From contig NZ_VUYS01000008.1 of assembly GCF_008389435.1 (NCBI RefSeq), positions 70,774-134,773 of the forward strand: 64,000 nt of DNA, given 5' to 3'. The DNA comes from Candidatus Nitrosocosmicus agrestis (GTDB taxonomy: Archaea > Thermoproteota > Nitrososphaeria > Nitrososphaerales > Nitrososphaeraceae). The notes beneath the pieces were generated by a model. The model did no database searches. It was not told the origin of the DNA and saw only the letters and a program-made list of their open reading frames with translations. This document shows positions 72-4,909 of the stretch, one piece after another. How positions within the stretch are numbered: position 1 is the stretch's first letter; each line of letters begins with the position of its first letter. The position numbers were made by a program, and so were the translations under genes.

Positions 72-404
72 TTATCTTTGTACCTTTACAGTTAGCATGT
101 CTTCAGTCAAACTGATTATTTTTATTATCATTAATTTTGGACTCTTGGAATTTTCCAGCATAACCTTGATAATATCTGGATTTTCAAGGGTAAAATTACC
201 TTCAGAATAAACGGGTCTGTCATCTGGCCCAACTTCTTGGATTATTACATGACCATTTTTTTTAAATTCCATGATCCTTTTGCCCCTAGTAATGGGTATC
301 TCGGCTTCTGACGATCGAAAAGTCATCTCTTCACTATCTGGAATATTTTTGTCGGCAGCAAATACCCACCTTTTAACGAGTTTATGTAGAATCTCAGACT
401 CCAT
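72..404 (-). CDS. hypothetical protein, lipocalin-like
   Basis: A 110-residue soluble protein with no signal peptide or membrane segment. The body alternates short beta-prone stretches with charged turns (an EFKKNGHVIIQEVG stretch in the middle, TVKVQR at the end), which resembles small lipocalin-like beta-barrel proteins; no catalytic residues can be assigned. It starts with ATG and ends near the window edge. The next gene to the left lies outside the window and the M43 relic to the right is on the same strand about 80 bases upstream. I do not recognise a specific family and the lipocalin idea is only an impression from the strand pattern. Confidence 0.6.
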   Translation of the reverse strand: MESEILHKLVKRWVFAADKNIPDSEEMTFRSSEAEIPITRGKRIMEFKKNGHVIIQEVGPDDRPVYSEGNFTLENPDIIKVMLENSKSPKLMIIKIISLTEDMLTVKVQR

Positions 405-487: not shown

Positions 488-1566
488 CTATAAAATCTCT
501 TCAACTGAAATCTTTTTGTCTCCTCCGCTAAAGACTTCGGAAGGTAGTAACATAACCTTTGATAACTGTTCTTCTTCAATAGGACAGATCAAAACATCTG
601 ACTGGAGTAATGATGACCTAGAAGTATTTAGAGTTGCATGCATTCTAACAGATTGACCAACTGTAAACATGTACATGGAATCATCATCGGTGTAGTCCAT
701 ATAGTTCATCCACATGGTCCCATGTTCTCCTGTATCATTGCACCTTTGCGTATTATCGGGAAAAGATGGCTTTCCTGTATTTTCGAATCGTTGGTTGGGG
801 GTATCAACTACATTATCAGTTCCGCTGCATGGATCTTCCATCATTCCTTCATCTCCCCACAAATGATAACAGTTAAGATAATGTCCTATTTCATGAGTGG
901 CTGTTCTTCCCAAATTAAAATTGTTTCCAAATGGACTGTTGGGGGATAATACTGAGCCCCTATCACCAAAGACCCAATGACTAATCGCGACTCCATCCGT
1001 AGAAGGGGGTCCGGCTGGAAACTGCGCATACCCTAATAGTCCACTTCTAAGATTGCATGTCCATAAATTCAAGTACCTGGTGGTATCCCACGCGTCTCTG
1101 CCACCCTCAGAAGTAAACTTTATTGGTTCGGGGTCATTAGGATTCTGCGGGATATCAAATACCGTCCTATTTGTTTTTGTTCGGGTTATCCCTCTGGTAG
1201 GTTTTCCCTCTGGGTCCTTGCAGGCAAGTTTGAACTCGATTCGGGTGTCTGCTGCTAAATTTCTCCACGGTTCAGGTACCTTTACAATATCTTCATTAGT
1301 TCTTCTAAAATCTTTGTTTAGTCGATTGATCTGGCTAAGAATCTGTTCTTCTGATATGTTTTCTATTTCGTTATATACACCACGTGAACGACCACAGGTA
1401 TTGTCATAATTGTAGATCTGCTAATGCTTCGCGCAGAACGACCTGTAAATTGTAAAATGTTCTTTTCATCAGATTCTCTGTTCTTTCTATATCGTTCACC
1501 GTTTTTTTCTAAATTTCTCTTGTGTAGTAAGGTGGTACCGCACAATCCGCGACCCTGTTCACTCAA
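488..1566 (-). pseudogene. M43 (pappalysin/cytophagalysin-type) zinc metallopeptidase, frameshifted
   Basis: Two reading frames join into one M43 peptidase of about 358 residues. The first 64 residues (from ATG at 1566) carry the family N-terminus and end in the strand PVVVHVVY. The frame then stops at 1363, but from 1372 downward the next frame continues without a break (NEIENISEEQ, then an open 100 codons) into the catalytic part. That part holds the zinc motif HEIGHYLNCYHLWGD (HExxHxxxxxH) near residue 224 of the joined protein and the Met-turn MNYMDY. The shift falls in TATATA at 1372-1377, consistent with two extra bases. Members of this family are normally secreted or envelope proteases; no clear signal peptide is visible here. 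It is either a pseudogene, a phase-variable gene or a sequencing error. Confidence 0.85.
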
Positions 1567-2392: not shown

Positions 2393-3370
2393 ATGTGTAT
2401 CTCTCATATAGAAAGGTATGGTCCTCCAGATAAGACCAAAAGTCCAAGAACTCTTCAGAGCCAGGATCTTTCTGATCTTAGAGCGAAAAAAGCACGTATA
2501 GCTACTGATGCAGCGGTACAGACTGTTTTAAACCTAGTGTCAGTCAATAATCTGGAAAAATCAATTCTGGAATTGTCAAATTTTCATAATAGACATAGCA
2601 AATCTGTCTACATCCACGAAGTAGCAGATTGGATTCAAAGACAGCTTTTGGATATCGGATTCAATGACGTCAGCTTTCATGATTACAATGAAGATGGATT
2701 TGATCTTAAGAATGTCATTTGCAACAAGGGCGTGGAAACTGAGGAAGGATGCATACTTTTGACTGCGCATTATGACACCGTGTTAAGTAAGGATCCTGAT
2801 GACGTCACCAGCAGAATGCCTGGTGCAAATGATAACGCCTCAGGTGTTTCTGCACTTTTGGAGATCGCTAGGGTTCTTTCGGGTATTCCATTACAAAGAA
2901 GGGTCAAGTTCGCCTTTTTTTCAGGCGAAGAACAGGGACTATGGGGTTCTACTCATTATGCTCATCATATCAAGGAGAGTGGAGAAAAGATCCATGTTGT
3001 TGTAAACATGGACATGTGTGGAGAGACCGGGTTTTTGGCAAATGATAATCTGTCGTATATTGATATAGATAACGGGGAAACCGGAACTGTTGACTCTAAT
3101 AATATTCCGTCAAAGAATTTTGGTTTAAAGATGCAGGGCTTGGCTGAAGTATATGCCCAAATCGATACTATATTTGATCCCATTGATGCCAGTGACTACA
3201 TGCCGTTTGAATCTCGAGGATATGTCTGCATCGGAGCTTATGATGGATCTGCCATTTCAGAAAATCCTCATTATCATGATAGTTCCGACGTAATTTCAAA
3301 CCTTAACATGAACTTTCTCAATGAAGTTACCAAAATGGTTTTGGCATTTGTGTTGAGTGAGACAAAGTAA
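2393..3370 (+). CDS. M28 family zinc aminopeptidase
   Basis: A 325-residue metallopeptidase of the M28 (aminopeptidase Y/S, DUF4910-like) fold, which removes N-terminal residues from peptides using two zinc ions. Metal ligands and the catalytic base can be placed: His126 in TAHYDT, Asp147 in GANDNASG, Glu179/Glu180 in SGEEQGLWGS, Asp207 in NMDM and a His in HYHDSSD near 293-295. All expected positions are present, so it is probably active. No signal peptide or membrane helix is visible, suggesting a cytoplasmic enzyme, unlike many secreted M28 members. It is followed 122 bases later on the same strand by an M4 endopeptidase, so the two could act in sequence on peptides. The ATG at 2393 is the first in frame. 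Confidence 0.9.
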   Translation: MCISHIERYGPPDKTKSPRTLQSQDLSDLRAKKARIATDAAVQTVLNLVSVNNLEKSILELSNFHNRHSKSVYIHEVADWIQRQLLDIGFNDVSFHDYNEDGFDLKNVICNKGVETEEGCILLTAHYDTVLSKDPDDVTSRMPGANDNASGVSALLEIARVLSGIPLQRRVKFAFFSGEEQGLWGSTHYAHHIKESGEKIHVVVNMDMCGETGFLANDNLSYIDIDNGETGTVDSNNIPSKNFGLKMQGLAEVYAQIDTIFDPIDASDYMPFESRGYVCIGAYDGSAISENPHYHDSSDVISNLNMNFLNEVTKMVLAFVLSETK

Positions 3371-3492: not shown

Positions 3493-4551
3493 GTGCCTTG
3501 CCTTAACTATATGAAATATCCTATTTTGTGTCAGATCATGCCTCCAGATTTGCTCAAGCAGTTACTGGGTCAAGTTCCTGAAGAAGAGAAAAATATAGTG
3601 CTGAGGACAATAATTATTGACAGCAAAATGCGTGAGAGGAGGGCTATAATGGGTTCAATGTCCTCGATGTTCCCACTTGCAGGCGAAAAAAGTATTTGCA
3701 TTTTTGATTCACATAACACAAAGGATGTTAGATCTTCTACTAAAGTGCGGTGCTTAAACGATGATAAAGCAGATGATCTCTCTGCCAATGAGGCCTTCCA
3801 CGGGTTAGACGTTACCTATAATTTTTATGAGAATATTTTTGGAAGGAAATCTATCGACAACAATAACATGTCCATAAAAGGATACGTACACTGGGGAGAC
3901 AAGTATATGAATGCGTTTTGGGATGGAGCTAAGATGTGTTACGGTGACGGCGATCCAAATCTTGGAATAAAAAGCTTTACCGCTTCGATCGACGTTATGG
4001 GACATGAGTTGACCCATGGGGTAACACAATATGAATCTGGACTTGAGTACTGGTGTGATGAATCTCATCACCCGGGTGCTCTAAATGAGAGCATATCGGA
4101 TGTCTTTGGATCTCTTATAAAACAATATGCCCTTAATCAGACTGCCGAACAGGCCGACTGGTTGATAGGACAAATCTTTACTGATCCAAATCTGGCCCTA
4201 CGTAATATGAGAGAGCCAGGAACAGCGCGACCAAATGATCCCCAGCCAGCGCATATGCGAGATTATGTTAATCTTCCTAATGATGAGGATCACGACAATG
4301 GTGGAGTGCACATCAACTCTAGTATCCCCAACAAGGCGTTTTGTTTGGCAGCTATTGATATAGGGGGCTATGCCTGGGAAAAGGCTGGGCAGATTTGGTA
4401 CAAAGCGTTGCATGGAGATATTCCCACCGACTGTGATTTTCATACATTCGCCCAATTAACGCTAGAAACTTCAAAGTTGCTGTTTGGCAATGAAAGCAGG
4501 GAGCATCGGGCTGTTAGAAAAGGGTGGGAGGCCGTAGGGATAAGGATTTAG
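3493..4551 (+). CDS. protealysin-like M4 zinc metallopeptidase
   Basis: A 352-residue thermolysin-family (M4) endopeptidase. HELTH (171-175) gives two zinc His and the catalytic Glu; Glu199 in ALNES is the third ligand; His273 in GGVHINS is the transition-state His. There is no signal peptide; instead the N-terminus carries the short-propeptide motif IMPPDLL (15-21) typical of protealysin-type M4 enzymes, which are often intracellular and have a propeptide of about 50 residues. The GTG at 3493 opens the frame, but ATG 3511 (MKYPILC) gives a start more like known protealysins. The emfourin-like inhibitor gene follows 58 bases downstream on the same strand, as in bacterial protealysin operons. 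Confidence 0.93.
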   Translation: MPCLNYMKYPILCQIMPPDLLKQLLGQVPEEEKNIVLRTIIIDSKMRERRAIMGSMSSMFPLAGEKSICIFDSHNTKDVRSSTKVRCLNDDKADDLSANEAFHGLDVTYNFYENIFGRKSIDNNNMSIKGYVHWGDKYMNAFWDGAKMCYGDGDPNLGIKSFTASIDVMGHELTHGVTQYESGLEYWCDESHHPGALNESISDVFGSLIKQYALNQTAEQADWLIGQIFTDPNLALRNMREPGTARPNDPQPAHMRDYVNLPNDEDHDNGGVHINSSIPNKAFCLAAIDIGGYAWEKAGQIWYKALHGDIPTDCDFHTFAQLTLETSKLLFGNESREHRAVRKGWEAVGIRI

Positions 4552-4609
4552 GCTCTCAAATTGGTTAAAAATAAAATATAAAAAATAGTCAAAGGATCAT
4601 TTTGTATTT

Positions 4610-4909
4610 ATGAAAATTTATTTTTCTACCAGCGGAGGTCTAATGGGCATTTTAAATAATCACGTTATGATTGATTCTGATACATTTTCTGAAAAAGAAA
4701 AATACCAGTTTGAAAACTTGATAAGACATTCTGATTTCTTTAACTTACAATCTGATAGACCTCCAACACATGGTGCCGCTGATTATATCAATTATTCAAT
4801 TTCAATTGAAGATGGCAAGCAAAAGCACACTGTAAAAACAAATGATGTTACTATGTCATCCCAATTAGAACCTGTTATTCGTTTCCTTCAAAACAAAATC
4901 AGAAAATAA
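4610..4909 (+). CDS. emfourin-like inhibitor of M4 peptidase
   Basis: A 99-residue soluble protein with the layout of emfourin (M4in), a slow tight-binding protein inhibitor of protealysin-like M4 peptidases: an N-terminal strand ending in a Gly-Gly-Leu turn (FSTSGGLMG), an Asp-rich helix start (DSDTFSEKEK), the DFFNL segment, then DYINYSISIEDG and a KTNDVTMSSQLEPVIRFL tail. Its position directly behind the M4 gene on the same strand is the strongest support, because the bacterial pairs are encoded this way. It probably keeps the intracellular peptidase in check. A short AT-rich leader with ATAAAATATAAAAA lies upstream, so it may also have its own promoter. The family assignment is by pattern and context only. 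Confidence 0.75.
   Translation: MKIYFSTSGGLMGILNNHVMIDSDTFSEKEKYQFENLIRHSDFFNLQSDRPPTHGAADYINYSISIEDGKQKHTVKTNDVTMSSQLEPVIRFLQNKIRK

What the first reader, a model, noticed from the sequence alone, without database searches (positions are those of the whole stretch)
3493..4909. Protealysin-like M4 peptidase with an emfourin-like inhibitor gene in an archaeon
Seen: an M4 peptidase lacking a signal peptide, with a PPDLL short-propeptide motif and complete active site, is followed 58 bases later by a 99-residue protein with the emfourin pattern. Known: in Serratia and relatives emfourin is encoded in the protealysin operon and inhibits it. Inferred: the archaeal peptidase is intracellular and kept in check by the neighbouring inhibitor, a toxin-antitoxin-like balance.
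Basis: partly seen in the sequence, partly recalled or inferred. Interest (0 to 1): 0.6.

Follow-up and report, generated by a model that had tools for sequence, protein, structure and literature searches.

The report
Archaeal protease with adjacent inhibitor gene
An ammonia-oxidising soil archaeon carries a protein-cutting enzyme next to the gene for its probable built-in inhibitor, an archaeal example of a pair already known from bacteria; the same gene cluster holds a second, less familiar enzyme-plus-small-protein pair that may be new.

Summary
Window 3493/3511-4551 (+) encodes an M4 peptidase whose best solved relative is protealysin (E 1.6e-74), with an intact active site, a PPDLL propeptide motif and no signal peptide. 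58 bases on, 4610-4909 (+) encodes a 99-residue protein that matches Pfam Emfourin at E 7.8e-16. The genome carries archaeal AmoA, so the host is an ammonia-oxidising archaeon.

The pairing is not chance. All 11 M4 genes in 70 family genomes, and all 3 in 349 phylum genomes, have an emfourin beside them. At least 73 of 80 protealysin-like loci, nearly all bacterial, carry one. Four actinobacterial proteins hold both domains in one chain. The best reading is a cytosolic zymogen held in check by its dedicated inhibitor. "Toxin-antitoxin-like" is not shown, and predicted docking was inconclusive.

Protealysin-like proteases in "certain archaea" are already published, so this is a new member of a known kind. 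The less expected part is next door. In another genus the M4-emfourin pair again borders an M28-M43 module, and its M43 gene is followed by a small protein without a Pfam family. All ten members found of that family abut an M43 gene, so it is a candidate M43 inhibitor.

The parts
3493..4551 (+). Protealysin-like M4 metallopeptidase (352 aa from GTG 3493; 346 aa from ATG 3511), short propeptide with PPDLL motif, intact zinc site, no signal peptide
   Evidence: Pfam; PDB 2vqx; alignment of 11 archaeal relatives; hydropathy and start-codon context
4610..4909 (+). Emfourin-family protein, 99 aa, candidate inhibitor of the M4 peptidase
   Evidence: Pfam PF20242 E 7.8e-16; alignments with bacterial and archaeal emfourins incl. 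invariant G9 G10 G13 Y62; the family profile finds the solved emfourin 6zyg
4552..4609 (+). 58-base intergenic stretch, 21% GC, with a TATAAA 33 bases before the emfourin start: emfourin may be co-transcribed or have its own near-leaderless promoter (suggestive only, AT-rich DNA)
   Evidence: Direct sequence
2393..3370 (+). M28 aminopeptidase-family gene, member of the same conserved cluster, no signal peptide
   Evidence: Pfam PF04389 E 5.2e-35; same neighbourhood in G062 = L121
488..1566 (-). M43 (pappalysin-type, no signal peptide) metallopeptidase gene, broken by a single frame change where two frames overlap (about 1366-1420)
   Evidence: Pfam PF05572; three-frame reading; intact 340-aa counterpart in L121, 54% identical over the C-terminal 188 aa
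72..404 (-). 110-aa protein without a Pfam family, directly downstream of M43; candidate M43 partner or inhibitor
   Evidence: No Pfam hit; all 10 family members found abut an M43 gene

Best explanation
The two genes are an archaeal protealysin-emfourin pair. The M4 enzyme is made in the cytosol as a zymogen whose short propeptide covers the active-site cleft. Enzyme that matures prematurely is bound 1:1 and blocked by the neighbouring emfourin, so proteolysis is released only when the enzyme outlasts or escapes the inhibitor, for example on lysis. Shown here: family membership of both proteins, intact catalytic residues, absence of a signal peptide, near-obligate co-localisation across archaea and bacteria, and natural fusions. 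Inferred: binding, inhibition, autoprocessing and the biological trigger, all taken from the Serratia system. The neighbouring M28-M43-small-protein genes suggest an intracellular protease island in which each endopeptidase has its own small partner.
For: Emfourin family E 7.8e-16. M4 closest to protealysin, not thermolysin. In 70 family genomes 11 of 11 M4 genes have an emfourin beside them; on my count 8 of 8 M4 genomes against 1 of 62 without M4 hold a full emfourin, Fisher p 1e-9. In 349 phylum genomes M4 occurs in three, and those three are the ones with a full-length emfourin at E below 1e-8 outside larger exported proteins. At least 73 of 80 PLP loci, picked only by the M4 sequence, carry an emfourin, nearly always directly downstream. 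Four natural M4-emfourin fusions; the model of one matches 2vqx strongly and emfourin 6zyg weakly (E 3e-3, TM 0.40). M4 and emfourin divergences correlate, Mantel r 0.41, p 6e-4. In Serratia emfourin is in the protealysin operon, binds 1:1 at the active-site region and inhibits; its deletion lowers FtsZ and brings earlier culture decline (PMC9505478).
Against: No direct evidence of binding: AlphaFold gave confident folds but no confident relative placement (pTM 0.76 for both fused constructs), and the window's own pair could not be modelled as a complex. The window M4 is a long, fast-evolving branch (1.52 changes per column) with a four-residue insertion before the catalytic Glu, and its propeptide is too diverged for PLN_propep. 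Emfourin sits upstream, not downstream, in one genus, and one genome carries an emfourin without any M4 (G042).
Confidence: 0.8

Rival explanations
1. Effector and immunity pair: the M4 enzyme is delivered into competing cells and emfourin protects the producer and its kin.
For: Proposed for Serratia protealysin, which cleaves FtsZ and RecA (PMC9505478). Patchy distribution (1 of 15 genomes of the genus) and GC raised about 2.6 SD for the M4 gene (0.432 against 0.366 +/- 0.025) suit a mobile cassette.
Against: No contractile-injection sheath or baseplate gene in the genome; no signal peptide; no secretion or effector-delivery gene recognised among the neighbours examined; no PADLOC hit.
Confidence: 0.13
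2. Decaying acquisition: the cassette arrived by transfer and the pair, like the frame-broken M43 gene beside it, is losing function.
For: Very long M4 branch; M43 frame break two genes away; no other genome of the genus has the M4.
Against: Both ORFs are full length with every catalytic residue kept and a full-length Emfourin match; a decaying enzyme would be expected to lose some of these.
Confidence: 0.06
3. Chance neighbours: an M4 enzyme and an unrelated small protein.
For: Genes of any kind can be adjacent.
Against: Co-localisation in 11 of 11 and 3 of 3 archaeal cases and at least 73 of 80 loci of the wider survey, plus fusions.
Confidence: 0.01

Closest known systems
Protealysin-emfourin (M4in) operon of Serratia proteamaculans
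   Same: M4 enzyme with short PPL-type propeptide and no signal peptide, followed by an emfourin-family gene on the same strand
   Different: Host is an ammonia-oxidising archaeon; M4 at most about half identical to any relative found; propeptide below Pfam detection; a possible separate promoter for emfourin; neighbours are M28 and M43 peptidases
Protealysin-like proteases of other archaea (Methanoperedens L031; Nitrososphaeraceae G003, G004, G059, G062, G065, G067, G068; G335 of the same order)
   Same: M4 plus emfourin pairing in all those examined
   Different: About 33-48% identity to the window M4; gene order reversed in G065, G068 and two of three G067 copies. One common archaeal origin is neither shown nor rejected (p-AU 0.19)
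Actinobacterial M4-emfourin fusion proteins (L063, L079, L102, L105)
   Same: Same two domains in the same order
   Different: One polypeptide with a disordered linker instead of two genes
Potempins of Tannerella forsythia (from memory: small inhibitors encoded beside secreted proteases, including the M43 enzyme mirolysin)
   Same: Small protein encoded beside an M43 protease, as the 72-404 gene is
   Different: Potempins are lipoproteins; the window protein has no signal segment and its family profile finds no solved relative

Membership tests
Emfourin (Pfam PF20242) | Curated profile match above the gathering score over the whole domain | tested here: met
   58.7 bits against 27, positions 1-91 of 91
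Emfourin (Pfam PF20242) | Fold of solved emfourin 6zyg | tested here: inconclusive
   Sequence profile including the window protein finds 6zyg at 2.5e-4; models of an archaeal relative and of a bacterial fusion match it weakly (E 4e-3 and 3e-3, TM 0.48 and 0.40). The window protein itself was not modelled.
Emfourin (Pfam PF20242) | Inhibits the cognate M4 peptidase by binding the active-site region | not testable with these tools
   Docking confidence insufficient; needs an assay
Protealysin-like proteases (M4 subgroup) | M4 catalytic domain with complete zinc site | tested here: met
Protealysin-like proteases (M4 subgroup) | Closest to protealysin rather than to secreted thermolysins | tested here: met
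   2vqx 254 bits against 149 for thermolysin
Protealysin-like proteases (M4 subgroup) | Short propeptide with PPL motif | tested here: met
   MPPDLLKQLL aligns with IPPYMLRRII of 2vqx
Protealysin-like proteases (M4 subgroup) | Pfam PLN_propep (PF16485) match | tested here: not met
   No hit at E 1 for the window protein; 6 of 11 members of the archaeal alignment hit. The published definition is the PPL motif, so membership rests on the motif and whole-length similarity.
Protealysin-like proteases (M4 subgroup) | No signal peptide; intracellular precursor | tested here: met
   No hydrophobic segment in the first 45 residues; location itself not testable
Toxin-antitoxin system | Toxin harms its own cell unless neutralised by a labile antitoxin | not testable with these tools
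   No toxicity or turnover data; the enzyme also has its own propeptide brake

The most novel reading that the evidence does not exclude
The locus joins two independent protease-inhibitor pairs: M4 with emfourin, and M43 with a new family of 105-115-residue cytosolic proteins (window 72-404) that inhibit M43 peptidases. All ten members found (six in Nitrososphaeraceae, four on proteobacterial plasmids) abut an M43 gene on the same strand, several with an M28 gene alongside.
Probability: 0.45. Interest if true: 0.55.

Novelty: new member of a known kind. Interest (0 to 1): 0.33.

Why it matters
It shows that the protealysin-emfourin partnership is near-obligate wherever the enzyme occurs, archaea included, and that some bacteria have fused the two genes. 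That makes dedicated inhibition a near-constant trait of this protease group and gives ready-made pairs for testing specificity. The M43 gene next door has its own faithful small partner, which points to a possible second, unstudied inhibitor family and to a general rule that cytosolic metallopeptidases of this kind travel with a guard.

Tried and rejected
Modelled instead: natural fusion L105 and the in-frame archaeal pair L030 without propeptide. Both gave pTM 0.76, so domain placement is unresolved; Foldseek then only confirmed the parts. Separate transfers of PLPs into archaea: the tree scatters them, but one archaeal clade is not rejected (p-AU 0.193), so no claim is made. Delivery by a contractile injection system: no sheath or baseplate gene. 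Defence-system membership: no PADLOC hit. Nucleotide relatives on plasmids: only short M4 matches. Small M43-partner family in 50 PLP-bearing genomes of the survey: none. The Rhizobium plasmid pRLa11 also has an M4 near M43 and the small gene, but that M4 has a long propeptide and no emfourin was found beside it, so it is not the same cluster. (whole genome as file) and searches failed for technical reasons.

Full report
OBSERVATION. Window 3493-4551 (+) and 4610-4909 (+) are open reading frames as described. The first is an M4 peptidase by two Pfam domains (E 1.7e-28 and 3.5e-45), the second an Emfourin by PF20242 (E 7.8e-16, full profile). Among solved structures the peptidase is by far closest to protealysin 2vqx (254 bits, over residues 14-350), with thermolysin at 149 bits. 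The zinc site HELTH 171-175 with Glu199, and the catalytic Tyr186, Arg237 and His273, are present and conserved (roles from established thermolysin knowledge). The short N-terminus carries MPPDLLKQLL, aligned with IPPYMLRRII of protealysin, and has no signal-like segment. The genome has archaeal AmoA (E 4.8e-118), so the host is an ammonia-oxidising archaeon. The genus is probably Nitrosocosmicus (my inference from GC 34% and the sizes of sister genomes, not tested).

IS THE PAIR MORE THAN CHANCE? In 70 genomes of the family, PF02868 finds 11 M4 genes in 8 genomes, and each has an emfourin within about 1.3 kb (ORFs). Counting full emfourins, 8 of 8 M4 genomes have one against 1 of 62 others, Fisher p about 1e-9. 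In 349 genomes across the phylum M4 occurs in three, and these are the ones with a stand-alone full-length emfourin. A scan of named bacterial and archaeal genomes with the M4 alignment alone returned 80 protealysin-like loci, nearly all bacterial. By my profile plus Pfam on the rest, 73 carry an emfourin, three more are marginal, and four have none seen, two of them close to a contig end. The emfourin lies directly downstream on the same strand in almost all; L055 has it on the opposite strand.

FUSIONS. Four actinobacterial proteins (Propionibacteriaceae L063, Knoellia L079 and L102, Nostocoides L105) are single chains with M4 followed by Emfourin, all above the Pfam cut-offs. The model of L105 (pLDDT 88) matches protealysin 2vqx at E 6.7e-39 and, more weakly, emfourin 6zyg at E 3e-3. 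Fusion of two genes that are elsewhere adjacent is good evidence of a functional partnership.

MECHANISM. In Serratia, emfourin is encoded in the protealysin operon, forms a 1:1 complex, binds the active-site region and inhibits; deleting it lowers FtsZ and brings earlier culture decline (PMC9505478). [quoted passage not shown] The window pair has the parts for the same scheme: propeptide brake plus inhibitor. Binding itself is inferred. I modelled an archaeal relative's pair read through its stop (L030, mature enzyme): each domain folds with high confidence, but pTM 0.76 does not fix their relative position. A toxin-antitoxin reading needs evidence of self-toxicity and antitoxin turnover, which sequence cannot give. 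An exported-effector reading is weakened by the lack of injection-system genes.

HISTORY. The tree of 93 PLPs scatters the archaeal ones, with the window on a long branch (1.52) and no near relative, but a single archaeal clade is not rejected (p-AU 0.193). M4, M43 and M28 genes have raised GC (0.43, 0.41, 0.40 against 0.366 +/- 0.025 for long ORFs of the window), the emfourin gene lower (0.31). With presence in 1 of 15 genomes of the genus this suits acquisition by transfer, without naming a donor. M4 and emfourin distances correlate over 25 thinned pairs (r 0.41, p 6e-4), as expected for partners that travel together; shared descent alone can also give such a correlation.

THE WIDER LOCUS. 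Upstream lie an M28 gene (2393-3370 +), an M43 gene (488-1566 -, one frame break), and a 110-aa gene (72-404 -). The same five families stand together in G062, another genus: M4, emfourin, then on the other strand the small protein, an intact M43 and M28 (L121). The small protein has no Pfam family and no solved relative. Searching with it found four plasmids, all with an M43 within 0.3 kb. Three of the four have M28 sequence nearby, two of these only as remnants, and the Azospirillum one has the order M28-M43-small. In the archaeal family it occurs six times, each time beside an M43 gene. Of 11 clear archaeal M43 genes six have it; a different M43 subtype instead has a conserved 160-185-aa protein upstream (L143, L145, L156). 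I read the small protein as a probable M43 inhibitor by analogy with emfourin; that is inference from gene order only.

NOVELTY. The pair is a new member of a known kind. Archaeal protealysin-like proteases are on record (PMC6778150), and Methanosarcina acetivorans matches both families. I found no paper in the held library that treats emfourin in archaea, but subscription papers are not held. The M43-small protein pair and the M4-emfourin fusions are the points a specialist would probably not expect.

Noticed in passing
window 72-404 (-), 488-1566 (-); L121 8599-10048; L139-L142; L130-L133: Small 105-115-aa protein family without Pfam entry, always directly beside an M43 metallopeptidase gene: candidate M43 inhibitor.
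   Followed up: partly
window 488-1566 (-): M43 metallopeptidase gene interrupted by one frame change (frames overlap at about 1366-1420); either a pseudogene or an assembly error. An intact counterpart exists in G062.
   Followed up: partly
L063, L079, L102, L105: Natural M4 peptidase-emfourin fusion proteins in Actinomycetota.
   Followed up: yes
L010, L012, L015, L112, L116, L124:7642-8175: Larger proteins of Thermoproteota with an N-terminal hydrophobic segment and an emfourin-like domain (several above the Pfam cut-off), mostly in genomes without M4: possible inhibitors of external proteases.
   Followed up: partly
L118 7789-8106 (-), genome G042: Orphan full-length emfourin in a complete genome without any M4 gene.
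   Followed up: partly
L122, L127, L129 (G065, G068, G067): Emfourin lies upstream of the M4 gene with about 0.6 kb between, the reverse of the usual order.
   Followed up: partly
L143 2495-3052, L145 2489-2974, L156 505-1005: A different conserved 160-185-aa protein without a clear Pfam family sits just upstream of a second M43 subtype in three archaeal loci.
   Followed up: no
L131 (Rhizobium leguminosarum plasmid pRLa11): M43, the small partner, an M28 remnant and a long-propeptide M4 peptidase lie together on a conjugative plasmid, resembling the archaeal island with a different M4.
   Followed up: partly
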